64,000 nt of DNA from an uncultured Eubacteriales bacterium (GTDB lineage: Bacteria > Bacillota > Clostridia > Christensenellales > Aristaeellaceae), in assembly GCA_902799045.1 (NCBI GenBank), contig CADBZH010000012.1, forward strand, positions 1-64,000. Direction: 5' to 3'. Made by a program: the position numbers and the translations under genes. The notes under the pieces were generated by a model. That model made no database searches. It had not been told where the DNA came from and saw nothing but the letters and a program-made list of their open reading frames with translations. Shown one piece after another: positions 18,731-64,000 of the stretch (positions within the stretch are counted from its first letter, which is position 1; each line of letters opens with the position of its first letter).

Positions 18731-18872
18731 ACCGGATTGCCACGTCGGTCCCGCCGGGACCTCCTCGCAATGACGCCGCACAGTGCCGAATGGGAGCGCG
18801 TCGCAGAACCGCGGGACGAACCGGTAGCGAACCACGTCATTGCGAGGAGCGAAGCGACGCGGCAATCCGGAT
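18731..18872. repeat. Cruciform intergenic repeat (copy 3) with flanking direct repeats
   Basis: Inverted arms at 18731-18775 and 18834-18872 share ATTGCCACGTCG / CTCGCAATGACG with copies 1 and 2. The left arm has the internal palindrome GGTCCCGCCGGGACC where the right arm has CGAAGCG. The whole is flanked by direct repeats of CTCGATCGCTGATCCCCA at about 18702 and 18944. Downstream, 19034-19050 and 19078-19094 repeat GCGGCAGCGAACGGGG around a CCGGGG/CCCCGG hairpin. The 400-base gap 18700-19100 is made of these repeats and shows no gene. Confidence 0.75.
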
Positions 18873-19100
18873 CCCCATTTTTCCAGGGGCGGCATCTCGC
18901 GCACACCGCGCACGAGATGCCGCCCCTGCGATTCTCTATTGTCTCGATCGCTGATCCCCACTGGAAAAGGCGGTTTGCCCGTAAAACGCAACCCCGTGCG
19001 CTGGAATCAGCGGCGCACGGGGTTTGTTCATACCGCGGCAGCGAACGGGGTCCGGGGGTCCGGGGCGATGCCCCGGCGCGGCAGCGAACGGGGAAGGGGC

Positions 19101-20795: not shown

Positions 20796-20924
20796 GCAAA
20801 ATCCCCCTTGTGATAGCTTCATCCCGGAGGGAACCGGGCGGATTCATTCTGATAGTATGATAAAGTCAAAATCAAAATGAATGTTGTGTATAATTATAAA
20901 TTCATATTTGACTCATGTCAATGA

Positions 20925-20949
20925 AAAATCGCGCAAAATGCGCGATTTT
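20925..20949. terminator. Bidirectional intrinsic terminator
   Basis: AAAATCGCGC, loop AAAAT, GCGCGATTTT: a 10-pair stem with U tracts either way. It ends the MerR-like gene (stop at 21024, minus) and insulates the symporter gene. The AT-rich bases 20830-20920 between it and the symporter probably hold the symporter promoter, which I could not fix. Confidence 0.85.
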
Positions 20950-21023
20950 AACTTGATGATAATGCAGTTTTGTATTTCGTTGGTCTTTTGAGTGGAGGAA
21001 CACGCCGACAATCAGAAGAGACG

Positions 21024-21761: not shown

Positions 21762-21784
21762 AGCATTTCGCCTCCTTGACCCTG

Positions 21785-21815
21785 ACAATAGCACATGACG
21801 CGGCGTCACGAGCAA
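21785..21815 (-). promoter_or_regulatory. MerR-type promoter/operator of the membrane-anchored regulator
   Basis: On the minus strand TTGCTC (21815-21810), a 19-base spacer and TATTGT (21790-21785). A perfect dyad, TGACG-N3-CGTCA (21796-21808), sits in the middle of the spacer. An over-long 19-base spacer with an internal dyad is the hallmark of MerR-activated promoters. Confidence 0.8.
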
Positions 21816-21869
21816 CCCCTGACGCAGGAGGATTTTTCAAAAAAAGTCTGTTATGGGAAGAAAAACTAC

Positions 21870-21945
21870 TTATGGTAGGGTTCTCCGGTGCGGAGTCAAG
21901 GGGACAGGTTCCTTGACTCATTTATGGTACGGCTCTCCGGTGCGA
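21870..21945. repeat. Duplicated rlmH 3' end split by a palindrome
   Basis: Bases 21870-21892 and 21923-21945 are near-identical direct repeats (TTATGGTA-GG-TCTCCGGTGCG). Between them lies the palindrome GAGTCAAGG...CCTTGACTC (21893-21919). Both copies encode RTGEPYHK followed by a stop on the minus strand. The pattern looks like insertion of a palindromic element with target duplication. The interval 21784-21869 otherwise shows only the MerR promoter. Confidence 0.75.
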
Positions 21946-22394
21946 ATGCGCTCGGCGCGGTAGAGCTGCTCCAGCAGGATCACCCGCATGAGGCCGTGGG
22001 GGAAGGTGAGGTTGGAGAAGGACAGCTTCAAATCCGAACGGGCCAGCACCGCCTCCGACAGGCCGTTGCTGCCGCCGATGACGAACACGTTTCGGCGGCC
22101 GTCGCCGGAGAGGGCGGCGAGCTGCCTGGACAGGGCGACGGAATCCGGCGCGGGGGCCTGGATGCACAGGGCGATTACACGATCCGTGGGCCGGATGTGG
22201 CGAAGGAGCGCCGCGCCCTCCTTGTTCCGGATCTGGGCGAGCTGGGCCTCGCTGGGCCGGTCCGGCTCGCGCTCGTCGTCCACGGCGAGGATCTCATATT
22301 TTCCGTAGCGGGACAGCCGCTTCAGGTATTCCGCGCAGCCCTCCTGCTGCCACTTCTCCTTCAGCCGGCCCACGCAGAGGATCGTGCCGTTCAT
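21918..22394 (-). CDS. rlmH: 23S rRNA (pseudouridine-1915-N3)-methyltransferase RlmH
   Basis: A 158-residue SPOUT methyltransferase that methylates pseudouridine 1915 in helix 69 of 23S rRNA. The start is the ATG at 22394; a longer frame to 22904 lies out of phase inside the protease gene. The knot motif NVFVIGGSNGLSEAV, LKLSFSNLTFPHGL and the invariant end LLEQLYRAERIRTGEPYHK are all present. Its ATG overlaps the stop of the upstream CPBP protease gene by four bases (ATGA). The last eight codons are duplicated immediately downstream. Confidence 0.97.
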   Translation of the reverse strand: MNGTILCVGRLKEKWQQEGCAEYLKRLSRYGKYEILAVDDEREPDRPSEAQLAQIRNKEGAALLRHIRPTDRVIALCIQAPAPDSVALSRQLAALSGDGRRNVFVIGGSNGLSEAVLARSDLKLSFSNLTFPHGLMRVILLEQLYRAERIRTGEPYHK

Positions 22395-23344
22395 GCCGCG
22401 CCACCCCCGGAAAGCACCAGCAGGATGGCCGTCGTGCCGATCATCGCCAGTACGGCGGCGGCCAGCCACAGCCGTTCGCCGGCCTCCAGCGGCGTCCGGG
22501 CGCGGGGCAGGGCCCCGATGTCCGGCTGGTTTCTGCCCCGCAGCCAGAGGGTGGCGAGCGCCACGCCCGTCAGGCCCAGCATCATCAGCGTCTGCAGCGC
22601 CAGCGAGATCACCCGCGCCGCGTCGAGGAACAGCTCCGCGCCGTCGCCCTGGCCCTGGCCCATCAGATAGGGGATGACCAGGCAGGCGGCGTTGTAGACG
22701 GTGTGATAGACCATGCCGGCGTAGACGGAGCCGGTGGCGAAGGTCACGAAGCCCGCGATGCCGCCCACCAGCAGGTACACCGGCAGGCCGTAGAGGTTGC
22801 CGTGGAGCAGCGCGAACAGCGCCGAGGAAACGCCGATGGCGAAATACGTGCCCCGCGTCTCCCACGCGGCAAGCACGAACCCGCGGAACAGCAGCTCCTC
22901 GCACACCGCCGGCAGCGCCGCCATCGTCAGGATGGACAGCGCCAGCGCGCGCTCGTCGCCGGGCACGGCCACGCCGGCGGGGCTGTGCAGTCCGATCCCA
23001 TCCAGCAGAGCGCCCCAGACCGCGGCCATCGCGCTGGCGATGTACACGCTCAAAAGCCCCAGCAGCCCCAGCGTCAACACCGACATCACCGGCAGCGGGT
23101 TCAGCCGCATGGCGCCGGAGAGGCCGCGATGCCGGCGGGCGTAGAGGGCCATCGGCAGGGCGACGAAGGGCAGGTAGTACAGCGCGTTTTCAATGGCCCA
23201 CATGGCCTCCGGGCCGGCGGAAAACAGCCCCGCAGCCAGGGACGACAGCCACAGGCCCGCCGTCGCCAGCAGCACAAAGGCGCTCGCCGCACAGAGCGAC
23301 GGGCGGGACAGGAGGCCGGTTTGGCTGTTGCTAGATTCGTTCAT
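22391..23344 (-). CDS. CPBP-family intramembrane metalloprotease (CAAX/Abi-like)
   Basis: A 317-residue membrane protein with about eight hydrophobic helices. The ATG at 23344 is preferred because AAGG lies six bases upstream; another ATG at 23350 has no spacing. The CPBP catalytic motifs are visible: EELLFRGF (paired glutamates, residues ~155), FALLHGN (His) and a third helix with YHTVYN. The family includes Rce1 CAAX proteases and bacteriocin-immunity proteins; substrates in bacteria are mostly unknown. It overlaps rlmH by four bases and follows ychF in the same direction. Confidence 0.88.
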   Translation of the reverse strand: MNESSNSQTGLLSRPSLCAASAFVLLATAGLWLSSLAAGLFSAGPEAMWAIENALYYLPFVALPMALYARRHRGLSGAMRLNPLPVMSVLTLGLLGLLSVYIASAMAAVWGALLDGIGLHSPAGVAVPGDERALALSILTMAALPAVCEELLFRGFVLAAWETRGTYFAIGVSSALFALLHGNLYGLPVYLLVGGIAGFVTFATGSVYAGMVYHTVYNAACLVIPYLMGQGQGDGAELFLDAARVISLALQTLMMLGLTGVALATLWLRGRNQPDIGALPRARTPLEAGERLWLAAAVLAMIGTTAILLVLSGGGAA

Positions 23345-23418
23345 ATACATCCTTGGGGGAAACGGGATTCAGCGAAGAGCGAGGAGCTGAGCGCCTGGCT
23401 CCTCACCGGTTCTGGTTG

Positions 23419-24516
23419 TCAGACGTTGAAGCGGAATACCGTCACGTCGCCGTCCTTCATCACGTATTCCTTGCCCTCGCTGCGCAGCAGCCCCTTCTCC
23501 TTGCAGGCGTTGACGCTGCCCTCGCGGACCAGGTCCTCGTAGGGGACGATCTCGGCGCGGATGAAGCCGCGTTCGAAGTCGGTGTGGATCTTGCCGGCGG
23601 CCTGGGGGGCCTTGGTGCCGTTCACGATCGTCCAGGCGCGCACCTCCTTGGGCCCGGCGGTCAGGAAGCTGATCAGCCCCAGCAGGCGGTAGCCCAGCAC
23701 CACCAGGCGGTCCAGGCCGCTGGTGCCGATGCCCATGTCCTCCAGGAACATGGCCTTTTCCTCCGGCTCCATCTGGCTGATCTCCTCCTCGGCGCTGGCG
23801 CAGATCACCAGCACCTCCGCGCCCTCGCTGTCGGCGATCTCGCGCACGGGCTTCACCAGCTCCAGCGCGCTCTCGTCCTTGCCGAGGTCCTCCTCGCCGA
23901 TGTTCGCGGCGTAGATCACCTTCTTGCCGGTCAACAGGAACCAGTCGCGCACCACGGCCTGCTGATCCTCGTCCAGCGGGCAGGTGCGGGCGGGCTTGCC
24001 CTCGTTCAGGTGGTTCAGCAGCAGCGCCCCGGCCTCGGCCTCCACGGCGTATTTCTTCTCGCCCTTCTTCAGCATGGCGGCGGCCTTCTCGGCCCGCTTC
24101 GTCACGGTTTCGATGTCCGCCAGGATCAGCTCGGTGTTGATCACGTCGATGTCCCGCGCCGGGTCCACCGAGCCGTCCACGTGGATCACGTTGTCGTCTT
24201 CAAAGCATCGCACCACGTGCACGATGGCGTCCACCTCGCGGATGTGGCTCAAGAACTTGTTGCCCAGGCCCTCGCCGCGGCTCGCGCCCTTCACCAGGCC
24301 CGCGATGTCCACGAATTCCAGCGTGGCCGGGGTGTACTTCTCCGGGTGATACATCTCCGCCAGCACGTCCAGCCGGTGGTCCGGCACGGCCACGATGCCG
24401 GTGTTCGGCTCGATGGTGCAGAAGGGATAGTTCGCCGCCTGCGCTCCCGCGCAGGTGATGGCGTTGAACAACGTGCTCTTGCCCACGTTCGGCAGGCCTA
24501 CGACGCCCAATTTCAT
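23419..24516 (-). CDS. ychF: Redox-regulated ATPase/GTPase YchF (OBG-like)
   Basis: A 365-residue soluble P-loop protein of the OBG family, binding ATP in preference to GTP and associating with ribosomes. G1 is GLPNVGKST (residues 7-15), G3 is [20 protein letters not shown], and a helical hairpin follows (residues ~130-200). The C-terminal TGS domain occupies ~280-365 and ends VTVFRFNV. Length and sequence are normal. It is the first gene of the leftward group ychF - CPBP protease - rlmH, with 74 bases before the protease start. Confidence 0.97.
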
Positions 24517-24630
24517 ATGTCCTCACATCTCCTTATTTTCAGGGGTTTTCAAGTGTTTGCTCGGTGGATTTACACCAATTCTACACCAATTCTCATCAAT
24601 CCGTTCTCCTTCCGTTTGAAGCAAAGGCTA

Positions 24631-25256
24631 TCAGGCGTTTGCTTCAAAGAGCTGTACTCCGCTCAGCAGGGAATCATCCGTCACGTGTACGTATCGATCC
24701 ATTGTGGTCTTGATGCTCGCATGCCCCAGCAGCTTTTGCAGCACCTTGGGCGGCATGCCGCGTTCGATGGCTCGCGTCGCATAGGTGTGGCGCAGCGCAT
24801 GCATGCAGAATCGCTTGATGCCTGCTCCGTCACAGAGCTTGTACAGGTGCGTGTCATACGAACTGTTCTTCGCGGGCTCACCCGTCCGCCAGTTGATGAA
24901 CACCAAATCCCGCATACGAAGCGTCGCCGACTGCCCGGTCTTTCGATCCATGTACTCCAGTTCCAAAGCCAGTGTGTCCGATTCCTTGCGGGTGTCGCGT
25001 TCCGCGTACAACTCCTTCAGAATCTCAACAGCTTTGGTGGTCAGCGGAATCGTGCGATAACTTCAGTAGAAAGCGCAACCTCGCCATGTCGTTCAGCGTA
25101 CTTGGCATCTTCCAGCCAGTTCCGTGCCTCCGGCAGAGTCTTGAAGTACTTTTCCTGACGTTTTCCGGTACTGTCTAAAAACCTTGCGGAGTATAATCCG
25201 TCCTTTCTCTGGCAAATCTCCTTGCCAATTTCCTTTCCTTTGAGATTCTTTCCCAT
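24631..25256 (-). pseudogene. Tyrosine integrase with a large internal deletion
   Basis: Two pieces of one Tn916-type integrase lie head to tail. Bases 25256-25041 encode an Arm DNA-binding domain (ICQRKDGLYSARFLDSTGKR). Bases from about 25060 to 24631 encode the catalytic end, starting mid-domain at [19 protein letters not shown] and containing [29 protein letters not shown] with the nucleophile Tyr and a short tail. The core-binding domain and the first catalytic Arg region are missing, and the join is out of frame. Intact relatives have about 400 residues; about 200 are lost. It is a relic of an integrative element whose cargo may include the small genes to 26.8 kb. Confidence 0.85.
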
Positions 25257-46619: not shown

Positions 46620-49600
46620 ATGAATAACTTCGAGAAAAACAATCAATCCATCAATGCGCGGGACCTCGGCGTCGACGCGCAGCAGGGCGGCGCGCGCCTG
46701 AACCGGCGCTTCCTGAAGCGCCTGCTCAGCCTGCTGCTGGCCGTCTATCTGGTCATCAATTCCTGCGCCTTTGCGACGGATGACGGCGACCTGCTTCCCG
46801 GAACCGCGGCCGGCACCGTGACGAGCATCCTGGAGGAGCTGCCGGAGGAATTCCCGGAGGAGGTCACCGACCTGGCGCTGGGCGACGACGTGTCGGCCGC
46901 CGAGACGTTCGATCCGAATACCTTCATCTATATTCTCGGCGAGGACGAGACGGAGCTGTCCCTCAACGGTCTGATCGAGCTGCTCAAGATGCCCGTCAAG
47001 CCGGAGGATATCCAGAGCGTGAGCGTGCTGGGCAGCGAGGACGACCTGGTGGCCGACCTGTCCGAGCCGCTGACCGTGATGGCCGTGGAGGAGGACCATA
47101 TCATCTACGTCAACCGCTTCTTTGCCGAGGCGGGCCTGGCGATCTATACCCTGGACGACATGTATACCCTGAAGCTGCGCAACGTCCTGGCGGACGGCAG
47201 CGTGGACCTGCCCGTGGAGGAGCAGGGCGAGCTGGAGCTGGGCGACGAGGGCACCGGCCTGGAAACGACCATGGACACCCTCTACAGCTATTCCATGGAG
47301 GCGACCGACGGCCATGTGACCCTCGGCGAGCTCCTGAACGCGGTGCGGCTGCAGCTGCTGCTGCGCAGCGTGGAGTCCGTCGGCGTCGTCGAAAAGTATG
47401 GCGGCGAGGCGCAGCGCGTGTCCGTGGCCCGGGTGAACGACGATTTCTCCATCACGGTGCTGGCGGATTTCGACGAGCTGGAGCTGGCCGTCTGCACCGC
47501 GGACGACATCTATACCATCGCGCTGCTGAATGGCAGGGCGGCTGAGGCGACCGAGGCCCCCACTGAGGCGCCGACGGAACAGCCCACCGAAGAACCGACC
47601 GAAGAACCCACCGAAACGCCTGCCGAAGAGCCGACGCCCGAGCCGGTCGAGGAGATCGAGGCGGAGCTGACCGAAGCGCCGACCGAGGAACCCACCGAGG
47701 CGCCGACAGAGGAGCCGACCGAGGAACCCGCCGAGGCGCCGACGGAGGAGTCGACCGAGGAACCCACCCCGGAACCCACCGAGGAACCGACGCCGGAACC
47801 CACCCCGGAACCGGTTGAGGAGATCGAGGTGGAGCTGACCGAGGCCCCGACGGCCGAACCGACCGAAGCGCCTGAACCGACCGAAGCGCCCAAGCCGGAG
47901 CCGGTCGCTGAGATCCTCTATCCGGCGCAGACCTTCACGGGCCGCACGGCCCGCGTCCGCGTGACCGCCGAAGCGCCCGAGGGCGCGTTCCCGGAGGGCA
48001 CGCGCATGGTGGTGCGCCCGGTTTTGAGCCGGGTGACGCTGGACACCATCGCCGACACCGTCTCCGACGACTTCGTCGAGGTGGAGCAGGTCTACGCGGC
48101 GGACATCGCCTTCTACAACGCCGAGGGCGAGGAGATCGAGCCGCTGCTGCCCATCTCCGTGGTGATGACTGTGGACGAGATCGAGGACGAGCTGGACGCT
48201 GTCGTCGTGCACATGGACGACGAGGGCGCGACCGAGATCGTCGAGCAGAGCGACGCGCCGGAGGCCGACGGCGGCAAGCTGGCGCTGAACGTGGAGCTGC
48301 CCGCGGCTGAAGCGACCGAAGTCGGAAACGAACCGACCGAGGTCGGTGGAGAAACGGCGCTGACCATCGAGGCGGACGGCTTCTCCGTCTACGCCGTGGT
48401 GGTGACCCGCACCATCGAGACCCGCTACATCGACGCCGACGGCGCGACCTACGCCATCGAGGTCGGCTTCGGTGCGGAAGCGGGCATTCCCGCCGACGCC
48501 GAATTGCAGGTTGCCGAGCTGACCGGCGACGAGGGCGAGGACTACGTCGCCCGGGCCGCCGAGGCGCTGGACGTGAATGGCAGCCAGGTCGCCTACGCCA
48601 AGGCCCTGGATATTTCCATACTGGTGGACGGCGCGCCCGTCCAGCCCGACATCCCCGTGTCCGTGTCCATCAGGCTGATGGACGCCCCGGACCTGAGCGC
48701 GCTTGAAAATGTCAATGTGGTTCACCTGGGCCGCAAGGCTGAAGTCATCGACTGTGAAGTACGGCAGGAATCCGTCGGCTTTGAGGCGGATGGCTTCTCG
48801 GTGTACGTGGTTGTCGCAACCACCCTCGAACAGAAGCTCACAGCATCTGATGGAAATGAATATTTAGTTACCGTTACATACGATTCCGCCTCCGGTATCC
48901 CGGAGAACGCGGAACTCATTGTCTCTGAAATCAAAGAGGGGGACGATGGGTACGATCAGTATGTAGCCGAAAGTGCCGAAAAACTGGATATTTCAGCCGA
49001 AAATGTGTCGCTTGCGAGACCTTTTGACATTACTCTGAAGAATCCTGAGACAGGCGAGGAATATCAGCCGAATGAGGCTGTCAAGGTCAGTATTGAATTA
49101 TTATCCGAAGATCTGAATGAATATGCAAATATAGACGTCGTCCACTTTGGTGAAGAGACCGAGATCATGGACGCAAGCATAAACGGAGATGCCGTTGAGT
49201 TTGAGACGGATGGGTTCTCGGTGTATGTTTTGTGCGCCTATACGGTGGACTTCCACTGGGGCGATTATACCTATTCCATCGCGGGCGAGAGCGAAATCGC
49301 CCTGTCTGCCCTGCTTGAAAAGCTGGGCGTGACCGAGATCGCGCTTAATGATATCAAGGATGCCACCTTCTCCAACCCGGAGCTGGTCGGGGTGGAAAAG
49401 CTGGATGCCGATTGGCTGCTTCGCTCCCTCGCGCCCTTCCATACCGAAGAGGCGCTGGTTCTCGCGCTCAAAAATGGCGAGACGGTGGAGATCAAGGTCA
49501 CGGACGCGGTGACGCTGCCTGCCAACGGAACATGGGATAATGGCACTAAAGGAAGCGGAACCTGGGAAGTGGATGAAAACGGTGTGCTGACTCTCTCCGG

Positions 49601-52600
49601 ATCCGATGAAATGAAAGATTACACAAGAAATAATTATTGGGTTAAGGATACTCCTTGGTTTAATTATATAGTTAAAGATAGTACTCATCCTGACCCACCT
49701 GTCACCAAAATAGTGATAACAGGCGGGATTACGAGAATAGGAACCAATTCATTTACTAGGACCTACAACCTGAATGAAATTGATGCATCAAATTGTTCTT
49801 CACTTACTACAATAGGCGAGGCTGCTTTTAAACAACAAAGCAGCGGTTCCGCATCAAATAACCCGACGGTCACTAAAACTATCAATTTTTCCGGTTGTGT
49901 TAACTTAGGATTAATAGAGAAAGAAGCCTTTAGGGATTGCACCGGTATTGAAGAACTTGATATTTCAGAAACAAAGTTGCAAGCAAGCTATATTACGACA
50001 TTTGGAAATGGAAAAGCTGGCTTTGGCGATAGTAAGGGTACCCTTAAAATACTAAGGGCAAATGGATGCACAACGAATTTTACAACACTGGATCTTACTG
50101 GATGGAATAAGCTGGAGACTGTTGAGCTTTCCGGCTGCACCAATCTGACCAGTCTGACCCTTCCGAGCAACGTAACGACGCTGGATGTCTCCGGCTGCAC
50201 GGGTCTGACCAGCCTGACAGTTCCGAACAGCGTAACGACGCTGAACGTCTCCGGCTGCACCAACCTGACCAGCCTGACCCTTCCGAGCAATGTAACGACC
50301 CTGAACGTCTCCGGCTGCACGGGCCTGACTGCGCTGGATCTGAGCGGGACTTCTCTGACGGATATCGACGTATCCAATAATACTTCCCTTACCACGCTCA
50401 AGCTGCCCGCGACGGTCACCGAGCTGAATATCACCAACTGCCCGAATCTGGTGATCTATTTTGACGGGAAGGCCGAAGACCTCCCCGATGGGATACTGGA
50501 CGGTGCTTCTGTAGTCTGCTGGGGCGACTATACCTATGCCATTAAGAAAAACACTACCGCAGCGCTGGACGAGATTTTCACGGCCTGCGGCATCACTGCC
50601 ATTGACAGCACGGATGTTGAGAGCATTTCCGCTTCCGACCCGAGCGTTCTGGAAATCACCGACCTGACGGTGACGTGCCTGGATGCCTTTACCGATACGC
50701 AGACGCTGACGGTTACGCTCAAAAATGGCTTAACCGGCAATATCAGCGTTGAATGCCAGATGGTGGCGGAAAAGGATAATCTCAACCTGTTCCTGGATTC
50801 CGGCACCGTTTACAGCTATGAGGGCGAAACAGAAACACATGCGCTGTCGGTTCCCGCTATCCTCAAAGAAGGGGATACACTCAATCTGACCCTGTCCTTC
50901 TCCGAAATCCCAGAGGGGGAGGAGGGCGAGCGCCAGATGAAGCTGCTCTCACCGATGAAGTATACCTTCCCGGAGGGACTTACGGTTTCTGATGTTCCGG
51001 ATACCGTAACGTTCAGCGTTCAGAGCGGCGAGCAAACTCTCAGCTTCACGGTTTCTGCGTCTTTCAACGAGGAAACGCGCGAGCTTACGATAACAGGAAA
51101 CTATGGCGATCAGGAATCCGCGGTCAGCGCGTCCGACGCGGTCAGCTTCACCGTCCCCGTCTCCGTTCAGGTGAACACCGTACCGGGCGAATATGACCTT
51201 GGCAACGACATGACGTTATCAACGGTCAAGCCCCGCAACGTAAAGGTGTCCTCGATGAGCGCCGATGCGTTTGACAGCGAAAGCGGTACCGTTCAATATA
51301 CCGTGACCGTGGAAGCGGAGAGCAATCTTGACACTGACGAAAAGGAATACCCGGTTATCATCACGGACTCCGCTACCGACTTTGTGTCCGGCAGCTATAC
51401 CTATACGCAGGAGAACAGGCCCGAGGGTGCGCCCGCCACGCAGGTGAACGGGGCGGAAGTACAGCCGGGCACTGAGATCGTCTTCAACGGCTTGCCGTTG
51501 ACCGTCGCCCACATGTATGACGGCGACAAAATTACTCTGACCTACAGGGCAAAACCTCAGCATGGAAGCTATGACGCGGCAACGCAGATGGTCAGCCTTG
51601 AGAACACCGTCACGATCGACAACAACGGCAACCCCTCCAACGACCCGGAGGACGATACGTTCAGCGCCACCTGTGGGAGTATTTCCTATGCGCCGCTGAA
51701 AAGAGAATACGTATCGCTGGACGGCAGCTGGGCTTACTGGCGCGTTACGGTGAACCCCAATGGCTATGCGTTGAACGGCGGCAAGGCGGTCACCCTCGCT
51801 GACACCTTCCACGACGAGGTTACGGGGGATGCCAAACAATCCATCGACTATTCCAGCGTCGCCATAACGGGTTCGGGCAGCGTCACTTATGATTACAGCG
51901 GCAATACCGGCACCTTCGTCATACCGGACAGCACGCCCGTGACCATCACCTATCGCACGCGCATCACGGCCCAGCCGGGCGAGGCCAAGACCTTCCGCGG
52001 CACCGCCGTGCTGAAGACCGCCAAATATGGGGATGAAATTGCCAGATCCACGGCGGGCGTCACCGCGGAGCCGGTTGTGATCTATCCCAGCGCCTCCGAT
52101 GTGGCGGGCACCGGCAACTACATGGTGAAGCTCTTCGTCTATGCCGAAGGGATGATGCAGCAGGGCATCGAAGGGGCGACGTTTATCCTCCTCGACGCCA
52201 ACCAGCGCCCCCTGGAATATAAGCTGGGCGATAACAAGGGCCAGCCCGTCACCTTTACCACCGGCAGCAATGGCTATGTTAACATCGAACTCAATGAGGA
52301 GCCCGGTGATGTTTCCATTGAAAAGAATACCGGTTACTATCTCGAAATGATGCAGGCAGTGCCCGGATATCAGAAAGATAACACCCTCTACAGTTTCATG
52401 ATTACCGATGATCCGGATTATAACTCCGGCGGTTTCTATACTTATTACAACGGCGACACGATGAAGGTGCGCCTCTACGCGCCTACCCCCGGTTTGAGCG
52501 TCTCCATCCGCTTCTCCGGCAGCTATGCCCTGCGGCAGGATCAGCAGGACGAGGTAACGGCGGTTCTCCAGAAGCTGGACGAGCACAATCACTGGGTCGA

Positions 52601-55600
52601 AGTTGAGCGCCACCCCTATACGGATACGCAATGGGGCGCGATCGTATTCAACAAAACGCCGTTGTATGATCCGGCTTTGGGGCAGTATCAGAACCGATTC
52701 CGCGTCGTCGTAGCCAACGAGAGCCCGTGGGATCTGCCGGAGAACATTCATGTCGAAACCACTTATTACAGCATGGTGAATACAAATGGCTCCAATCCCG
52801 AAACGACGCCTCAGGAATTCGAGGTCGAGAACGCAAAAGACACCGTCAACGTCGTCATTGTCAACCGCTACGAGGATCCGCAGCTTACCATCATCAAGAT
52901 GGACAAGAGCAACGGCGAGGCGCTGCCCGGCGCAGTCTTCTCGGTATACAAGATCGTGAACGGCGCGGAAACCGGCGAGCCCGTAAGGACGTTTACGACG
53001 GATGATAATGGCGAGCTGGTGATTCGCGGCGGTGATGCCTTTGAATCTGAGACGCTGTACGGGATCAAAGAGACCGAGGCGCCGGACCTGGTTGATCCGG
53101 ACACCTCTACCAAGGTGCATTATCTGTTGCCGCAGCAGCCGGAATGGCACTATTTCTACTTCTGCAACGACGATTATCTGGAGCCGAGCATTCTGGCGAA
53201 CCTTCCCGAGGACGCGACGGCGGTCAACCTGACGAGCAACGGCGACAGAATCATCATCGGCAACCAGAAGGAATTGATCACCATCCCCGTCATGAAGCTC
53301 TGGCAGGGCAATGTCTGGCCCGAGGGCGCTGAGGTCGTGGTCGGGCTGTATCGGTCTGTGGAAGGCGTGGAGGGAGAAGAAGCTGTTAATTATATCGACG
53401 GCACTCCGCGAACCGTCACCCTGAACAGCGGTATGCCCTACAACAACACGGCTTTCAAGGACCTGCCTTCGCGGGACGATCAAAACCGCAACTACATTTA
53501 TTCCATCAGGGAGGTAAGCGTCAACGAAGAAGACCCGCTTGAAGCAGGGTACAACCAGGAATATGGCATTTCCAGCGCTGGCGTGTATATCGTGCGCAAC
53601 AAACCGGCCACCACGCTGACAGTCAGCAAGGAGTGGTATGATTTCCAGGGGAATAAGGTTGAGGATGAAAGCGTGCTTGCTGTGCAATCCGCTGTCACCT
53701 TCGATGTTTACCGCTCGACCACGAAATTTGAAGACAGCACCCCGGACGATGGCATCACCAACACGGATATGACGACCTTTGTCGGCGGTCTGGTGAAGGT
53801 GCGGGAAAAGCTGAGCTTTGGCGCAGCGAATAATTGGACCATATCCATCCCCGACCTGGACGAAAAGGATGACCTGGGCAACGACTATTACTACTATGTC
53901 CTGGAGGATATTCCCTCCTTCGGCAACGAGCTGTATGAGGTGAACGAGGATGCCGGAACCATCCTGATCAAAAACAGGATCGCACCGGAAACCGTGAACC
54001 TGACGGTGACCAAGGCCGCCCTGGTGAAAGACCCCCGCCCGGAGTCCCTGGACAGGGATTTCGAGTTCACCCTGAAGCTGCAGGCAGATGACACCCATCC
54101 TATCCGAAGCTGGCAGGTTTATACTGACGAGGAGCATCCGGAGAATAATCTGGTGACCGACTGGAACGGCGAAGCAGTGTTTACCCTCAAGCCGCAGCCG
54201 ACAGAAGGGTCCTCCATCACCCTTAGCCTGCCTGTGGGCGTGACCGCATCCGTCACCGAGACCTATAACGCCGAGTACACGGTGGAGACAAGTACGGACG
54301 GCGGCACTACCAAGACGAGCGGCAGGACCTTCACCTATGCGGTAGACGAAACTGCCGTCGACCTCACCTACATCAACACCCTCCATGTCGTCTGCAAGGT
54401 TGTGGATGATAATGGCGTTCAGACGCCCTTTGAATCCCTGAAGAGCGCGCTGAAGCATATTCACGATCATTCTGACGCCTTCACCGCGCCCTGGACCATC
54501 TACATGCTGGAGGATTACACCATTCTCCCGACGGATGGGATCACGCTTGTGGACGGGGAGAGCCTGACCCTCACCACGGCTTCGACCACAGACGTCCTGT
54601 TCCCCTTCAACCGTGGCGAAGAAACTGGCCGCGCCGTCATCACTCGCGGCGGGGCTGGCGACAGCATACTCAAAAACGCGGGCACGCTGACGCTTGAGAA
54701 CATCGTCCTCGACGGCGGAAAGGACAATTACTCCGCCACCGGCGACGGTGGCCTGGTGAACAGCACCGGCACGCTGAACCTGAACGACAAGACCACCCTG
54801 CGCAATTCCGCCGCCGAAGGCAAGGGCGGCGCGGTGTATGCCGAGGGCACGGTGAACATCGTCGATGGCGTCGAAATTACCGGCAACAGCGCCCCCAGCG
54901 CCTCCGCACTGTATCTGAGCGGCAGGCTCGACATGACCGGCGGCAGCATCACCGAAAACACCGGCGCTTCTGACGGCGCGGTGGTGGCCATATCCACCGG
55001 CGATCAAATCAATCTCTCAGGCACTCCGGTCATTTTTGGCAACACCAACAAACCGGGCAAGGATGGCAAAGCGGCCAACCTGTATATCGGCGCTGACAGC
55101 GACAACGTGGTCAATGTCGTCTATCCCGGCCTATCGGAAAATGCGAAGATCGGCGTCACCGCCATGGAGGGGCATATGGCGATTGGCGAACAGTTTGCTT
55201 CGGCGGGATTCGGGCAGACGGCGAACCTCAACTGCTTTGTCAACGATACATACGGCTATCGCGGCAAGCTGAAGGACGGCACCTCCACCAACATCGTCTG
55301 GAACGGCCTGACGCTCAAGATCAAAAAAGTCGTTGAAACGGTTGGGGCCAATCCCGACGACCGCTTCACGATCAACCTCTCTTCCATGTCCATCATGATG
55401 AGCACCTATATCATCGATGGCACGATTGATTACACGGTCACGGCGGCAAGGACGAACAGACCCGGCAGAATCCAGCTCAGAAACGTGAAGGCGGATGATG
55501 AAATCACCATCTCCCCCCTGCCCGTGGGCGACTATACCATCGCCGAGGCGGATTCCAACTATGCCCCGACCTATACCATCGTCGAAACCGGAAGCGGTGA

Positions 55601-58600
55601 AGACCCCACAGCCATTGAGAACGGCAACTTCCACGCCGAGAACAGCAGCAGTGTTACCGTCACCAATACCCGCAGGCTGGCGGATGTGAAGCTGACGAAG
55701 ACCCTGGACGACCGGCTGAAAGCGGCGGATGAGACGCAGACCTTCGAATTTACCTTCAAGCTGACCGATGAAGACGGAACGGCGGTTTCGGGCTTCACGC
55801 TTGCGGAGGGCGTTACCACGAATGCAGAGGGCGCGGCGAGCTTTACCATGTCGCCGTCGAATGCGGCGGAGGCGATCCGCGAATTCAAGGCTCCCGTCGG
55901 CGCGACCATGACCATCACAGAGACCATTGATCCGAATTACGAGATCACGGCCTCTGCCCTTACCATGCCCAAAACAGGGGAGGGCACGGCGATCACGGAT
56001 GCGGACGCGGACAATCCCAATATCTTTGAGTTCCAGGTGACCGATGACGGCGCTGACGTCACCTTTGACAACGTGCGCAAGATGGCGGAGATCGAGCTGC
56101 GCAAGAATCTTACGGGCAAGGTCTCGGCTCCGGAATCCTTCACCTATACCGTCACGCTTACCCGTGCCGACAGGACGCCCGCGGCGAACTTTACCATGTA
56201 CAGGGACGAGGCGCACCCGGAGAATAACATCACCACCGATGATGAAGGCATTGCGACGATCACCCTTGACCTCCAGGCCGACGAAACCACCAAGACCATC
56301 CTTCTGACCATCCCCGAAGGCACGAAGCTTGTCGTTGCGGAGACGGAGGTCAAGAAGCTTGTTAACGGTTCGGAACAGGCGATCTATACCACAAAATACA
56401 GCGTCAATGGCGCGGAAAAATCCGGCAGGACGGCGACGATCAACAAGGTTTCCGACAGCGATCACAGCATTGTCTTCAACAATACCCGCAAGACGAATAC
56501 CATCGTTGTAAAGAACACCGTCAACGGCTATTCCGGCAACGTGGTGCCCTTTACCTATACCGCCACGGTGACGGACTGGGTCGGCGAGAATCCCGAGGAC
56601 ACCAAGCCCGAAGGATACGACGATTATGACCTGAACGGCTTTGCCAACGGCACGATGACCTTTGAGCTCACAACCGGTCAGACCAGGACACTGACGGTGC
56701 CCTACGGCGCGACGCTGACGGTAACCGAGGGATTTATCGTCGGCTACGGAACCACCGTAAAACGCGGTGGAGCCACTGCTGTCGAGGCATTGAGCGATAC
56801 CTTTGTTGTGAATGCAAACATGGCGTCATCCTCACCGCTCCTGTTCACGAACAGTCAGTTGATTGGTTTGCGCCTGGTAAACAATACCTCATCAACGCTT
56901 GAAAATGTTACGGTTACAGCGGAAAAAAAGAACAAAATATATCGTGTAAATAGTGATCAGACCGGACAGGCATTGATTGGCAGCAATAAGACAGCTACGC
57001 TGAGTATTGCCGCTGGGGAGACTGCCATACTGGAAATCGAGCATGATACCGGTACGACTTACGAACAGCTTTACACAGTCACAGGTAGTACGCCTATAGA
57101 AGGCTATTACTACACCATCAACAACGAGCCGTCCTTCCATGAAACCGCTGATCCGGCGATTCTGCGAATTTACGATACAGGCAGTTTCACAGTCAAGGGC
57201 AAACTTCGTTACAGCGTGCAGGATTCGATTGTCACCTTTACCGAGCAGCCGCTGGTCAGCTTTGACGCCAACGGCGGTTCCTGGACGACGGAAATGGACG
57301 GCTACCATGACCAGGATGGCAACCGTAAGGTTTATCAGTTGGCTGTCGATAGCGGGGAGCAGGTTGCCAAACCGACGCCTGATCCGGTCTATCCCACGGC
57401 AGAGGGAATCACGTTCCTCGGCTGGACGGAGGACAAGGGATACGCTGACCAGGATCATTCTGCCGATACAGAGATTGATCCGCAGAAGGCGTATGACTTT
57501 AATACCCCCGTGACCGCCCCGATTACACTCTACGCGGTTTGGGCGAAGCCTGCCCGCGATGAGCGCGTTGTGACCGTCAGAAACGGACACACCGAAAGCC
57601 TGACCGTCACCGCGACGCTGACGCTAAGTGGCCCGGCAGTAGCTGAATATGTTGTCGCCGACGGTCTGACCACCGACGCAGACGGAAAAGTAAGCTTTAA
57701 CCTCCCGGCGGGTGAGAGCAAAAACCTGACGGTTCCCGACGGCGTGAAGCTTGTTTTCGGCCTGGACAAAGAATCTCTGGCGGTATCTTCGGAATACGCG
57801 CTCACGGCCTCCGCGGACAACAAGAGCCACACCATTGAATCTGTCGAACGCGACGGCACCGTGACCTTTATTCCCGGCATCTGCAAGATCACGGACGACG
57901 CCGGTAACGTGCTCTATGATAACAACGGCAAGCCCGCCGTGTACGGGAAGCTTTCTGATGCCTTCACGGCCTATGCCGGAACGCTCTATACCGATGCGTC
58001 CCACACGACCGCGGCGACCCAGGCGGCGGTGAAGATGTTGGTGGATGAGTATACCATCCAGCAGAGCGCCGCGCTGACCTTCCCGAACAAGACCATGACA
58101 CTGACCACCGCCGGGAAGAATGATACGGACTTCCCGTATATGGGCGGGCGAGACTGCAGCACCATTTATCGCGCTTCAAACGGAGTCGATAATTCCTGCT
58201 TTATATTAAACAGCGCTGCGAATACGCCCGGTACGGTTACCCTTACCAACATTATTCTGGATGGCGGCAGCGAACGCGGCATCAAAGTCAATGACGGCAA
58301 AAACGGCGCGCTCATAAATGTTACCGGCACCGGGGCCACGCTCAACATCACCACAGGCGCAACGCTGCGCAATGTGGAATACAAGGCGTATACCAGCAAC
58401 GCGAACGGCGGCGCGGTCTACCTGACCTACGGCACTCTGAACGTGAATGCAGCCCTGTTCTCCAACCTCCACGCCTATCAGGGCGGCGCGATCTGCGTAA
58501 CGGGCGGCACGCTGAACCTCACGGGAACGGCGGGAAGCACACAGTTTGAAGATTGCAGTTCGGAAAGACAGGACGGCGGCGCAATCTACTATAACAAAAA

Positions 58601-61600
58601 GCAAGACGTTGTCATTGACGGCGGCACAGAGAAAAATAACCCCGGCATCATCTTTACGAGATGTGTTGCCGCATACACCACTGGTACAGGGGATGGCGGC
58701 GACGGCGGCGCGATTTTTGCCCAGTCGGACTATCAGAACACCGTAACGGTCAAGGGTTGTTCGTTCATCGAGTGCAGCGCCAGAACCGGAAATGGGTCAT
58801 CAACTGCCGGCTACGGCGGCGGCGCTATCTGTGGCTTTAGGTTGAAGGGACTTACAGTTGAAGCGTGTAAGTTTGACACCTGCGATACCCTTTGCGGCGG
58901 CGGTGCTATTGTTGCTATGGTAAAATATACGGAGAACGTCGATAACGAAACCGTCACCATCAAAAACTGCGTTTTCAATCAATGCAACTGCAAGGGCCAG
59001 GCTGGCGCGCTAGGTGTATATCAGGATAATAACGGCGCAGCCAATAGCGCAACAAAACTGTCCGTTATTGGCAGCACCTTTGATAACTGTTCCAGCGGTA
59101 CGAACAATGGTTCCGGCGGCGCGGTTCAGTGCTATCTGCCCTGCATGGTCTTTTCCGGCAGCAGCTTTACTGACTGCTGGGCAGGCAAAGAGGGCGGCGC
59201 GGTCAACAACTTCTATGGCAGCAATTATACACAGGAATGGTCGAAATCCTATATGACGGTCACGAACTGCCGCTTCATCCGCTGCCGCGCGGAGGATCGT
59301 TATGATACCACCGCGCTGCAGCACTACGGCGGCGGCATCAACACCAAGGTCAAGACCGTGACGGTGACAGGCAGCTATTTTGAAGACTGCGTTTCCACCC
59401 TGAAGGAGGGCGGCGCGCTTCACATCGGTGGTCAGGGCGGCGGCAGCACGGCGTCGATCAAAGGCAGCACCTTCAAAAACTGTTCCGCGAAAAACGGCGG
59501 CGGCGCGGTGCTTTCCTCCCATGAGACGCTGACCATCGAGAACTGCTATTTCTACGGCTGCAGCACCTCCGCCAGCAACGGCGGCGCGGTATATCATTGC
59601 AAGAACAGTCGAGGCGATTCAACGCAGAAGAATCTGACAATCAAAAACAGCACCTTCGGCGTTGCTCCCAATGTTGAAAACGGCGAAGGCTGCAGCGCAG
59701 CCAGTAACGGCGGCGCGATCTGGGCGAGGGCAACCACAAGCATCACCCTGGAAGGACTGACGATCAATAAATGCTCGGCGAAAAACGGCGGCGGTATTTA
59801 TCTGACTGACACGGCTGCGGCAGCAAAAATCACCGGCGGCGCGATTACCGAAAGCACGGCAGAAAACGGCAGCGCGGTCTATGTCGGCAATACAGCCACC
59901 TTCTCCGGCAACCTCAACGTCTCCGGCAACACGGTTTCCACCCTCAACAGCGGCGCGATCCAGACCGTTGACGCGGGCACGCTCAACTTTGAGGGCAACG
60001 TGAAGGTGGAAAACAACACCTGCTCCGTCGATTCTGTCAACAAGCACGATGTGCTCATGCAGATCGACGGCAACACGATCATCAACACCACGAGCAATGG
60101 CCTTGGTCGTGAGGCGCATATCGGCGTGTATGTGCCGGGCGTAGATGGCGACGATTACTACGGCAAGCACGGCAAGTATAACCAGCCCTTCGGCACCTAT
60201 AATAACAGCGATGCGGGCAGCCGCTTCCTCGACGCCTTCTTCAACGATCGCGACAGCGAGCTTTACGGCTATCAGGGCACGGATGATGTTTTCATCCATT
60301 GGGGCTTCTATGTCTGCAAGATCACGGACGCGGAGGGCAACACCCTCAAGCGCCTCAACGGCAGAGACGCCGTCTACCAGAGACTGTCCCAGGCGTTTGA
60401 TGAGTTCACGATCGTGAAGGACGACAACGGGGAAACCGGCAAAGCGGTCTATATCAAGATGCTGGTGGAGGACTATGCCATCCGCCAGGAAGAGGCAATC
60501 TCCAACTTCCCCGCCGCGGACATCACCCTGACCACGGCCTCCAAGGATGACGCCGAGCACCCCTACCGTGGTACGGAGGGTACCGTCAGCACCATCTATC
60601 GCACTAACAGTGGAGACCCGCTGTTCAACCTGAGCATGGCAGGCGCGACCTTCCAATTGAAGGACATCACCCTGGACGGCCGCAAGGATAAGACAGCAAC
60701 GGAGGGCGACTACAAGCTCATCACGGCCAACACCGGGGAAATCATTGTCAACAGCGGCACCACGCTGCAATACGCGAAGGGCGACACCGGCGCGGCCATC
60801 GATGGCGTGACCGTGACGATCAACGGCATCTATGACGCGGAAAATAAGCAGCCGACCGTCAAAATCGCCAACTGCACCGCCACGGGCAACGGCGGCGCGA
60901 TCAGTGCGCAGAACCTGACTATAACCAATACCAGCACAACGCAGGGAGAATATGGCACGGCGTTCAGCAACTGTGCCTCCGCCAACGGCGGCGTGATCTA
61001 TGCCACCGGTACGGCGGTCAGCATGGCCGGGGCCTCCTTCACCGATTGCCAAAGCACGGGCGAGGGCGGCGTCCTGTTCCACAACTATACCGGAACGGAG
61101 TCGGCAACGACTGCGATCACGAACTGCGCATTCAACGACAGCGAAGCGACAGGCGGCGCGGGCGGCGCGGTCAGCTCCAAGGCCGGGACGCTGACGGTTG
61201 AAGGCAGCAGCTTCGATACCGTCAAGGCTTCCGGCAACGGCGGCGCGATCAGCCACACGGGAAGCACCGCCGCGACCATCACCGGCACCACCTTCAATGC
61301 CTGCCAGACCACGGGCAACGGCTTCGGCGGTTCGGTTTACACCCAGGCTGAGACGGTTGACATCGTCGGCAGCAGCTTCAAAGACAGCACGGCCGCGAAC
61401 CACGGCGGCGCGCTGTACTGCGCAAGCAGTGGCGAAAACTCCGCCGCCACCATCTCCGGCACAAGCTTTGCAAACTGCGCCAGCACCCTCGAAAACGGTA
61501 ATAATCACCTCGAAAAAGGCTGCGGCGGCGCGATCTACAGCAGGACCATGGCCCTGACCCTGCAAAGCCATACCCCGGAGGGCGGCAAGACCGTGAATAC

Positions 61601-64000
61601 CACCATCAACGGCTGCTCGGCCCCCGGCTCAAGCGGCGCGGTACACATGGAGACAAGCGGCAGCGCCCTCACCGTTAAGGACGGCACCGTGATCAGCGGC
61701 TGCTATGCCGACATGGGCGGCGCGATCTACCTCAAGCCCGGCGTGACCATGAACATCCAGGACAGCCCGGAGTTCAGCCAGAACGGCTATACGACCATAA
61801 ATGGCAGAGTTTTCGACGCTACAGAGGGCGCGTGCATCTATCTGGCCGAGGGCGGCAGGATCAACTTCAAAGACAGCCCGAAGTTCAGCCGCAACATTTT
61901 GCCGAACAAACCCAGAGTGACCAACCGCGGAATCACGGATTTTGCGCGTCAGGATGTATTTCTTGCCGGTTACTATTCCGGTAATGTCCTTGATACCAAT
62001 GCGGCGTCGATCTACGTCGTCGGCGAATTGACGGGCGATTACATTTGGGTCTGGCCGGAGCAGAGCCCCCACAGACAGCCCAATGAACAGTTTGCGAAGA
62101 TTGCCAACGGCGTAACGGTCAGCTCCGACAGCCTGAGCAAATTACTCAACGCACTGGGCGACGAAGAAACGCATTGCACGAACGGCGAATATCTTGCCGG
62201 TGTGCAGGTAGGTACGGATGCCGAGAATATCTACTGGGACAAGATGTATATCATCGACTTCAAAAAGAAGGATAATAAGGGCGTCGCGGTGCCCGACGCA
62301 GGGTTTACGCTCTACAGGGACCTTTCCTGTACGGAACCGGTGGCGACGGCGGTATCCGCGGATGGCGAGTTCGATGTCGACGCCCAGGGCAAGTACCTGC
62401 AAAGAGGCACGGTGGAGTTCAGCTCCATCCGCATCGGCGCGTATTACATGAAGGAGACCAAGTCGCCTCTCAGCTTCAAGGAGAACAACGCGACTTACCT
62501 GGTGCTGGTCGGCACGCCGTATCTGAGCCCCAATGACGGTAACAGATACCTTTGGGAGGGCGACGGGCCGCTCAACGTGGCGGACGCCGCGACGCTGGTT
62601 GCCCGGTATACGACCGACGCCGGAAAGTTTTACGGCATCTTCCCGCTGGATGAGAACCACAAGGCGGTGCTGCGCGCCAACCTTGCCAGCAACAATGTGG
62701 GTATCGAAAACATCCGCAACGACTATCAGGTCGCCTTTATGAAGGCAGACAGCAGCGGCGCGGCGCTGCCCGGCGCGGCGTTTACGATCTATACGCAAAT
62801 GCTGGACAGCGAGGGACAGCCTGCGACCTTTGAGGACGGTTATCCGCAGCTCATGCGCTGGAGCCGCGACGGCGAGAACTATCCTGATCCCATCGTATCC
62901 GCCGACGGCAGCGCGGCATACAAGGATAAGGGCGGCAATACGCTTCCCAAGGGCATGGTCTACTTCCGCGAGCTGCCGCTGGGCACCTATTACCTGTTGG
63001 AAACCGGATACCCCGAACGAAACGGCGATGGCCGCCGTACCTATTACCTGGAGAGCGATCGTGTGTTCAAGCTGGAGGTCACGGAATACCCGGAAAATCC
63101 GGGCGTGGCTGTTCCCACGCTCAGCGAGTGGAAGCCCGCCACTGATGACAGTGAAGCAGGATACAAAGAGCTTCCCACGAACAAAGCAGGCTATTACGTC
63201 ATTTCCAACCAGGAGGTTGTCTGCAAGCTGACGGATGCCGAAGACGTGCTGCTCTATACGCAGGGACATCAGATCTGGGAAAATAAAGATGAAGAAAGCT
63301 TCAGGCTTTTCCCGGCGATCTATCCCACACTGAAGGAGGGCTTTGACGCCGCGCGGAAGGGGACCTTCGTCTACGCTAACGGCGGTGAAGCCAACGTAGA
63401 TGCCACCGATCCCGACAATGCCATCAAGCTCAAGGTGCTCAAGGATTTCAACCTTGCTGAGCCGATAATCTACAACAACAGCGAGCGCGCAATCACCTTT
63501 ACCACGGCGGAAGCCAAAGCCAGTGAGTCAAAGGACAGGTATATTTTCAGCACCACCCGCACTTCGGATACCTCCAGGGCACTGATCAACCGGAATTACG
63601 ACGACGCGGATATTTCCAATAACGCCAATAACGGCGCGCTGATCACCCTTGATTCCGGCGCTGCAATGACCCTGGAAAACATCAGGCTCAATGGACAGAA
63701 GACCAAGTACAACGGCAGGGCGATCCGCGTAAAGGACGGCAGTACCCTGAACATCAATCGCAGCACGAAGATCGAAAACTTCAGGCAGGAGGCGAAAGCA
63801 GACAGCGCGGGCAACAGCGATCTCAAGGGCGGCGCGATCCTGTTGGATAACGGAACCTCCCTCTTCATCGACGGCGGCTACAACAGGACGGCTGAATTCT
63901 CCGGCAATACCGTTGTGAACGCGCGCAAGGAAGACAAGACCGGCGCGGACGGCGGCGCGATTGCGGTCGGCGCAAACTGTACCTTCAGCATCACCAATGC
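46620..64000 (+). CDS. Giant secreted adhesin with LRR, Cna-B/SpaA-like and Pmp-type beta-helix domains (3' end outside window)
   Basis: An uninterrupted frame of 5,793 codons to the window edge, with no in-frame stop. Signal peptide: basic N-terminus and [18 protein letters not shown], cleavage near residue 52. Order of parts: acidic region; Thr/Glu/Pro stalk (~304-428); three related domains each ending EADGFSVY (~430-880); a WGDYTY module repeated at ~880 and ~1300 around a BspA/LRR block (~970-1285); isopeptide-type and Cna-B-like domains (~1500-2580). Then four units follow, each a VCK-x-TD cap plus beta-helix (starting at residues 2589, 3753, 4564 and 5533), separated by SpaA-like spacers and one InlB-B-type repeat (57250-57550, FDANGG...ITLYAVWA). 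No sorting signal is visible because the C-terminus lies outside. It is probably wall-displayed and used for host or microbe adhesion. Confidence 0.9.
47521..47910 (+). repeat. Thr/Glu/Pro stalk repeats in the adhesin
   Basis: Repeated [12 protein letters not shown]-type codons for ~125 residues, interrupted twice by VEEIE-x-ELTEAPT. It would form an extended, rigid spacer lifting the head domains off the wall. Similar PEPSVEPT repeats occur in the secreted lysozyme at about 5990-6230. Confidence 0.9.
50127..50366 (+). repeat. 20-residue leucine-rich tandem repeats in the adhesin
   Basis: Four 60-base units encoding [20 protein letters not shown] and close variants. The preceding ~400 bases (49,700-50,100) are BspA-type LRR sequence and visibly more AT-rich than the rest of the gene. 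Confidence 0.88.
54384..55135 (+). repeat. Beta-helix unit 1 of the adhesin
   Basis: The cap begins [11 protein letters not shown] and ends in a SLTLTTAS strand. LENIVLDGG introduces a short right-handed beta-helix with KGGAVYAEG and TGGSITEN turns. This is the shortest of the four units. Confidence 0.8.
57876..60140 (+). repeat. Beta-helix unit 2 of the adhesin (Pmp-type, Cys-rich)
   Basis: The cap begins [11 protein letters not shown] and ends [11 protein letters not shown]. It is followed by about 25 beta-helix coils with NGGAIY/GGGAV turns. At least eleven coils carry an F-x-x-C motif (e.g. CSFIEC, CKFDTC, TFKNC, CYFYGC), the place where chlamydial Pmp proteins have FxxN. Confidence 0.85.
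60309..62080 (+). repeat. Beta-helix unit 3 of the adhesin
   Basis: The cap begins [11 protein letters not shown] and ends [10 protein letters not shown]. The helix has GNGGAIS, GEGGVLF and GCGGAIY turns and FxxC motifs (AFSNC, SFTDC, TFNAC, SFANC), some decayed to FxxS. Confidence 0.85.
63216..64000 (+). repeat. Beta-helix unit 4 of the adhesin (cut by window edge)
   Basis: The cap begins [11 protein letters not shown] and ends [20 protein letters not shown] introduces the next beta-helix, which runs out of the window at [16 protein letters not shown]. Confidence 0.8.

What the first reader, a model, noticed from the sequence alone, without database searches (positions are those of the whole stretch)
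46620..64000. Giant adhesin made of four repeated cap-plus-beta-helix units
Seen: one open frame of at least 5,793 codons in which a ~170-residue cap (VCK-x-TD start, LTTAS-type strand, then a LENI-x-LDG line) recurs four times, each time leading into a Pmp-like beta-helix and separated by SpaA/Cna-B-like spacers. Known: Pmp-type GGAI/FxxN repeats are best described in Chlamydia outer-membrane adhesins. Inference: a Gram-positive surface machine with repeated binding rods.
Basis: partly seen in the sequence, partly recalled or inferred. Interest (0 to 1): 0.8.

Follow-up and report, generated by a model that had tools for sequence, protein, structure and literature searches.

The report
Giant adhesin tied to type-IV pili
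An uncultured bacterium carries a gene for an enormous surface protein built of repeated rods, and in most sister species that have such a gene it sits at the head of the operon for retractable pili, which suggests an unusually large pilus-mounted grappling protein.

Summary
The frame is real: open from 46620 through the window to the contig end at 65037 (6,139 codons, no stop). The four caps are homologous. Two details fail: units 2 and 3 have no spacer between them, and helix 1 has no Pmp-type motif enrichment. It is not a mis-join: residues 1435-6138 are collinear with a separate MAG at 60% identity.
The likely 3' end is on contig C36. It has no sorting signal and ends in a SpaA-like terminal domain found in 18 of 18 giant tails tested.
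The new result is context. In 13 of 17 giant-bearing genomes of the genus the giant lies 5' of the pilin genes of a type IV pilus operon, in nine of them 26-76 nt away. All 16 cap-positive genomes carry that operon's first pilin, against 4 of 12 others. The window's own giant is one of four exceptions; its pilus operon is on another contig.
Best reading: a giant non-pilin adhesin docked to type IV pili by its C-terminal domain, working like PilY1 without belonging to that family. Probability about 0.5.

The parts
46620..64000 (+). Giant ORF, open to contig end (65037); 6,139 codons without stop
46620..46775 (+). Hydrophobic N-terminal signal segment after a basic N-region; end estimated by eye
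   Evidence: sequence; hydropathy 2.07; no signal-peptide program was run
47553..47909 (+). Pro/Thr/Glu-rich linker (PT repeat; best Pfam stretch 47670-47771)
   Evidence: PF04886, 42.4 bits
50130..50429 (+). BspA-type leucine-rich repeats (LRR_5, best stretch)
   Evidence: 52.8 bits
52881..53024 (+). SpaA (best stretch of two)
   Evidence: 53.7 bits
53799..54317 (+). Cna_B (29.1 bits) and DUF7601 (37.8 bits) before cap 1
54324..54935 (+). Cap 1 (residues 2569-2772)
54936..55319 (+). Helix 1, short, motifs not enriched; ends in an FVND..W-type segment
55323..57536 (+). Spacer: DUF5979, DUF7601 repeats, Flg_new
57813..58541 (+). Cap 2 (residues 3732-3974)
58542..60245 (+). Helix 2; FxxN/C 13 and GG[AG]-hydrophobic 15 in residues 3890-4545 (shuffle maxima 9 and 4)
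60246..60944 (+). Cap 3 (residues 4543-4775), directly after helix 2
60945..62234 (+). Helix 3
62253..63150 (+). SpaA domains between units 3 and 4 (best stretch 62253-62510; the place of the second was not printed)
   Evidence: 63.7 bits, two stretches
63153..63938 (+). Cap 4 (residues 5512-5773)
63939..64000 (+). Helix 4, continuing past the window to contig end 65037

Best explanation
The gene encodes a secreted fibrillar adhesin of about 7,300 residues (estimate) made of four or five cap-plus-beta-helix rods with SpaA/DUF7601-type spacers. It is not anchored by sortase. Its conserved C-terminal SpaA-like domain most likely docks it onto the tip minor pilins of the cell's type IV pilus, so that the pilus can extend, bind with the rods and retract. 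It would then do the job PilY1/PilC does in diderms. Shown: frame, caps, terminal domain, lack of a sorting tail in the giants read, linkage of the giant to the pilus operon in 13 of 17 giant-bearing genomes of the genus. Inferred: the C12-C36 join, docking to the pilus, tip position, adhesion and its ligand. In this genome the giant is not beside the pilus operon and would have to act in trans.
For: Giant 5' of the pilin genes, same strand, in G016 (3' end only), G086, G108, G128, G146, G255, G257, G259, G263, G264, G266, G267, G271. The stop-to-pilin gap is 26-76 nt in nine of these 13 (G128, G257, G259, G263, G264, G266, G267, G271, and G255, where the giant precedes the large prepilin by 62 nt); longer in G146 (about 199 nt, my arithmetic), G108 (265), G016 (507) and G086 (933, with a 308-residue ORF between). 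The operon encodes two T2SSE ATPases (PilB- and PilT-like), T2SSF (PilC-like) and N-methyl prepilins, and by inspection a prepilin peptidase and PilM/N/O-like proteins; the own PilB's best NCBIfam match is TIGR02538 at 577.8 bits, below that model's cut-off of 675.65. All 16 cap-positive genomes of 28 in the genus carry the first pilin, against 4 of 12 cap-negative (Fisher p 1.6e-4, not corrected for phylogeny). The terminal domain lies 0-33 residues from the C-terminus in 18 of 18 tails, leave-one-out 63.6-139.6 bits against at most 39.3 for any other domain; the own tail on C36 scores 128.8. Those 18 tails have no hydrophobic segment (maximum 1.18), whereas four cap-matching proteins with a hydrophobic, basic-ended tail score 2.1-2.3 and lack the terminal domain: G146 C4, G108 C11, G111 and G056, of another genus, which has two full caps. 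A conserved C-terminus with variable N-terminal parts, encoded with minor pilins, is what is described for PilY1 (PMC13190605, passages).
Against: The window's own giant is not next to its pilus operon (operon on C5), nor are those of G060, G256 and G268 next to the first pilin. RUG14439 has the closest giant (60%) and a pilus ATPase operon, but no match to the first pilin, no giant at that operon, and a C-terminal extension after the terminal domain. G253, G261 and G269 have the pilin but no cap match. Full caps also occur on a protein of another genus with a sortase-type tail (G056), so caps as such are not pilus-specific. C36 as the 3' end rests on synteny and homology, and its BLASTP match in RUG14439 is internal, not at that protein's end. 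No structure could be predicted. Linked genomes are relatives, so the adjacencies are not independent events.
Confidence: 0.5

Rival explanations
1. A fibrillar adhesin held by an unrecognised non-covalent anchor or simply secreted; it merely tends to sit beside the pilus operon, and the terminal domain is that anchor.
For: The giant sits at several loci (own: apparently the oxaloacetate decarboxylase locus; G060 and G268 elsewhere). RUG14439 has a giant without a match to the first pilin. Nearly half of fibrillar adhesin-like proteins lack a known anchor (PMC8286594, passages).
Against: 13 of 17 linked, mostly short gaps, and co-occurrence 16/16 versus 4/12.
Confidence: 0.3
2. An ordinary sortase-anchored adhesin whose real tail is missing from the assembly; C36 is the end of another gene.
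For: C12 ends inside the frame. At the syntenic locus G146 and G108 carry proteins of 2,727 and 2,908 residues with a sortase-type tail. The own genome has an LPSTG protein on C8, a contig with sortase genes.
Against: C36 holds the only other convincing cap match in this genome. C12 and C36 flank the same interval of G146 C4 in the same order and orientation. C12's end and C36 both align, in order, within the single G146 giant. Of the 18 finished giant tails none has a hydrophobic segment; bare motif-like strings (such as VPETG or LPGTA) occur in four of them, G128, G259 C399, G263 and G266, without one.
Confidence: 0.1
3. A chimeric assembly joining several surface genes.
For: It is an assembly of 54 contigs with repeats; other giants in the genus show broken frames (G128, G086, G268).
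Against: Collinear with RUG14439 over 4,828 and with G146 over 4,618 aligned positions, separate assemblies.
Confidence: 0.03

Closest known systems
PilY1/PilC tip adhesins of diderm type IVa pili
   Same: Large non-pilin with conserved C-terminus and variable N-terminal parts, encoded with minor pilins (PMC13190605 passages)
   Different: No PilY1 family among the Pfam matches to the giant or to C36; SpaA-like instead of beta-propeller C-terminus; 5,457-9,143 residues in the giants read from start to stop; the Discussion of PMC9934059 (passage) calls PilC/PilY1 absent in monoderms
Modular tip pilins PilB/PilC of Streptococcus sanguinis
   Same: Adhesion modules proposed at a type IV pilus tip in a monoderm (PMC9934059 passages)
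   Different: Those are pilins with a class III signal peptide; the giant has none found. The operon's own 763-2110-residue prepilins are the nearer analogue
Giant1-5 of Apilactobacillus kunkeei
   Same: 3,000-8,000-residue extracellular proteins with beta-solenoids and exchange between genera (PMC12863079 abstract)
   Different: Sortase, LPXTG, pilus and pilin do not occur in that main text; there the solenoid is N-terminal, here several rods repeat along the chain
Fibrillar adhesin-like proteins with SpaA stalks
   Same: SpaA stalk domains, long monomeric rod (PMC8286594 passages)
   Different: Repeated cap-plus-helix units; no sortase anchor seen; pilus operon linkage in relatives
Chlamydia Pmp proteins
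   Same: FxxN and GGAI-type helix motifs in helices 2-4
   Different: POMP repeat model above cut-off in only 1 of 4 units; SpaA/DUF7601 architecture

Membership tests
PilY1/PilC | C-terminal PilY1 beta-propeller domain (Pfam family Neisseria_PilC, name recalled) | tested here: not met
   No such match among those listed for the giant or C36
PilY1/PilC | Encoded with the minor pilins of a type IVa pilus | tested here: inconclusive
   Met in 13 of 17 giant-bearing genomes of the genus, not in the window's own
PilY1/PilC | Located at the pilus tip | not testable with these tools
   Needs pilus preparations or imaging
Sortase-anchored adhesin | C-terminal LPXTG-type motif plus hydrophobic segment plus basic tail | tested here: not met
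   C36 tail: maximum hydropathy 0.78, no motif; rests on the C12-C36 join
Type IV modular pilin | Class III prepilin signal (GFxxxE) | tested here: not met
   No N_methyl match in the first 960 residues, whereas the 3 large operon prepilins tested match it above cut-off
Pmp / polymorphic outer membrane protein | POMP repeats and autotransporter barrel | tested here: inconclusive
   One unit above the cut-off, one just below, two without match; no barrel among the Pfam matches
Fibrillar adhesin-like | Stalk domains of known type | tested here: met
   SpaA above cut-off at several places
Fibrillar adhesin-like | Adhesive domain with a ligand | not testable with these tools
   No known adhesive domain recognised among the Pfam matches; ligand unknown

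The most novel reading that the evidence does not exclude
Some monoderm bacteria have their own giant, non-pilin type IV pilus tip adhesins, outside the PilY1 family: rods of 5,500 to over 9,000 residues that dock by a dedicated C-terminal SpaA-like domain onto the minor pilins, with the rods exchanged between genera like interchangeable tool heads.
Probability: 0.42. Interest if true: 0.87.

Novelty: new variant of a known kind. Interest (0 to 1): 0.72.

Why it matters
The Discussion of PMC9934059 (passage seen) states that the non-pilin tip adhesin PilC/PilY1 is absent in monoderms. If these giants dock on pili, some monoderms have an independent solution of extraordinary size. It would also supply an anchoring mechanism for part of the many fibrillar adhesins that lack a known anchor (PMC8286594, passages). 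The prediction is specific (one terminal domain, one first pilin) and can be tested by folding and by pilus preparations.

Tried and rejected
Mis-join within C12: rejected for residues 1435-6138 by collinearity with two separate assemblies. A purely sortase-anchored reading: disfavoured by tails. A scan of viral contigs with unit 2 gave no relative. A profile search of solved structures gave nothing for whole units and five weak hits for the cap (best E 0.003; two repeat-protein chains, a ribosomal protein, a peptidase, a putative membrane protein), judged chance. Is the cap confined to this genus? No: full-length matches also occur in RUG14439 and in G056, another genus of the family. Wider out, of 391 genomes of the class only 10 besides the own match at E 1e-6 or better, and those only from profile position 95 onward, the generic start of a beta-helix. 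Paper searches for a monoderm non-pilin pilus adhesin or a giant pilus-linked surface protein: searches returned none; one unrelated review; some searches returned 71, 914, 45 and 21 papers, of which 15, 12, 8 and 10 were listed, and none of the listed titles or abstract starts describes this arrangement. I saw the outline, abstract and passages of PMC12863079, passages of PMC8286594, PMC9934059 and PMC13190605, and only listings of the rest; no paper was read whole.

Full report
What is in the window. The frame begins at ATG 46620 and stays open to the window end. The window is contig C12 of a 2.91-Mb, 54-contig genome (93% complete, 1.8% contamination). The contig ends at 65037 with the frame still open: 6,139 codons, no stop. 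The order is: signal segment, PT linker, BspA-type LRRs, SpaA/Cna-B/DUF7601, then four cap units. DUF5979/DUF7601/Flg_new domains lie between units 1 and 2, nothing between 2 and 3, SpaA domains between 3 and 4.

The caps. All six cap pairs score above every one of 300 shuffles; cap 4 is the most diverged. The shared features are the VCK-x-TD start, the TLTTA strand and the LENI-x-LDG line. Helices 2-4 carry the FxxN and GG[AG]-hydrophobic motifs above the best of 500 shuffles; helix 1 does not. Several units end in an F[VIF]ND...W segment, a possible C-cap (seen by inspection, not tested statistically).

Not a mis-join. Residues 1435-6138 align collinearly at 60% with a 6,980-residue protein of the MAG RUG14439 (record title: uncultured Lachnospiraceae bacterium). 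Residues 1693-6138 align at 46% with the giant of same-genus genome G146.

The 3' end. Contig C36 starts inside a cap and runs 519 codons through helix and two SpaA domains to a stop, with no sorting motif or hydrophobic tail. It is probably the missing end, for three reasons. It is the only other convincing cap match in this genome. Window 16064-25158 and C36 1614-14694 match the two sides of one interval of G146 contig C4, in order, with a cap-bearing gene of the same orientation between them. And in the single G146 giant, C12's end aligns to 5131 and C36 residues 225-463 to 6009-6242, leaving about 650 residues unassembled (and my arithmetic). Against: C36's BLASTP match in RUG14439 is internal (4415-4807), though the terminal-domain profile does find that domain near RUG14439's end. 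The join itself was not observed.

Pilus linkage. In G108, G146, G128 and G086 the giant is followed on the same strand by prepilin-like genes and then PilB-, PilT- and PilC-like genes and, where the fetched stretch reaches that far, a prepilin peptidase. I aligned the first pilin of seven genomes. It has a G|ASITFAL-type start without Glu5, which suggests the GspK/PilX position; that name is my inference, and no library named it (Pfam on the G108 copy, one match below cut-off; NCBIfam on the own copy, no match). It was sought in 308 genomes of the family: 21 match, namely 20 of the 28 in the genus and one other. In the upstream DNA a beta-helix/SpaA giant or its 3' end lies before this pilin in 12 genomes, in G086 with a 308-residue ORF between. 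In a 13th, G255, it lies before the large prepilin that precedes the pilin. The frames run to 9,143 residues (G267). Seven of the 20 lack a giant there: G000, G060, G256 and G268 have one elsewhere; G253, G261 and G269 have no cap match. So 13 of 17 giant-bearing genomes are linked, counting G016, which shows only a 268-residue 3' end at a contig edge and no cap. Other linked loci are also only partly seen (G259 C399, G263, G266), and G257's two contigs look like one locus assembled twice.

Co-occurrence. Caps at E 1e-6 or better were found in 16 of 28 genus genomes; all 16 carry the first pilin, against 4 of the 12 others. Fisher p is 1.6e-4, without correction for shared descent or missing contigs.

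Terminal domain. A profile of the last 170 residues, rebuilt without each held-out protein (and without near copies for six of them), finds the same domain 0-33 residues from the end of 18 of 18 tails, at 63.6-139.6 bits, while no other domain in those proteins exceeds 39.3 bits. I left out C12 (unfinished), G256, RUG14439 and four proteins of another kind (G146 C4, G108 C11, G111, G026). The full profile still finds the domain in G256 and RUG14439 at 105 and 106 bits; in RUG14439 an extension with Ig-like domains follows it. Four cap-matching proteins with a hydrophobic, basic-ended tail lack it: G146 C4, G108 C11, G111 and G056, of another genus, with two full caps. G026, which matches only the second half of the cap, has neither. 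So cap units occur on both kinds of protein, and the terminal domain replaces the anchor tail in the giants. The own genome has sortases and an LPSTG protein, so the absence in the giant is not for want of the machinery.

Exchange. PilB of this genome is 97% identical to G086 and 93% to G146 but 54% to RUG14439. The giant core is 60% identical to RUG14439 (DNA 74% over 6.5 kb), 47% to G146 over 4,527 aligned positions, and 28% to G086 over only 543. Yet residues 432-871, outside the core, are 64% identical to the pilus-linked giant of G086. The protein thus looks like a mosaic: an N-terminal part as in its nearest relative and rods shared with another lineage, which points to horizontal exchange of the rods. 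It is also the strongest point against a fixed pilus partner, since RUG14439 has a pilus operon, with a different pilin-like gene after PilC, but no match to the first pilin.

Mechanism. I think it most likely that the giant is exported by Sec, that its terminal domain binds the tip minor pilins, and that the rods act as the binding end of a retractile pilus. PilY1 proteins show the same logic: conserved C-terminus, variable N-terminal part, genes beside minor pilins (PMC13190605, passages). The Discussion of PMC9934059, a research paper on Streptococcus sanguinis pili, calls PilC/PilY1 absent in monoderms (passage). In this proposal the giant works like PilY1 but is not a member of that family. 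The ligand is unknown. No structure was available, and no experiment bears on it.

Noticed in passing
L086:14403-16943 (own C5), L041:12231-14729, L043:2814-9143: The pilus operons carry very large prepilins (763-2110 residues). Of three tested, all have an N-methyl signal above cut-off and two a GLUG motif above cut-off; they look like modular adhesive pilins.
   Followed up: partly
G146 C4 (L093/L054/L092) and G108 C11 (L055): At the oxaloacetate decarboxylase locus, where this genome seems to have the giant, relatives carry a cap-matching protein of 2,727 or 2,908 residues with an LGTG..hydrophobic..RKRR sortase-type tail, so two anchoring types seem to alternate at one locus.
   Followed up: partly
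L049 (G056 C54), 1-3438: A protein of another genus, open at the contig edge, with two full caps and a sortase-type tail: the cap-plus-helix unit is also used outside the giants.
   Followed up: partly
window:25158-46620: About 21 kb between the syntenic block and the giant, with an SbcC-like gene, esterases and reductases, has no match at the corresponding place in G146.
   Followed up: no
L043/L044 (G128), L046 (G086), L171 (G268): Giant frames look interrupted, in G086 within TP repeats, possibly assembly errors or phase variation; left as pieces.
   Followed up: no
G000 C11:212341, C3:31148, C8:40534, C2:179375: Weak matches to the C36 end domain in other large open frames (1518-3399 aa) of the same genome; the one on C8 ends in LPSTG plus a hydrophobic tail.
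   Followed up: partly
L174 (G255 C299:10579-13274): Operon order differs: giant, large prepilin, then the first pilin.
   Followed up: yes
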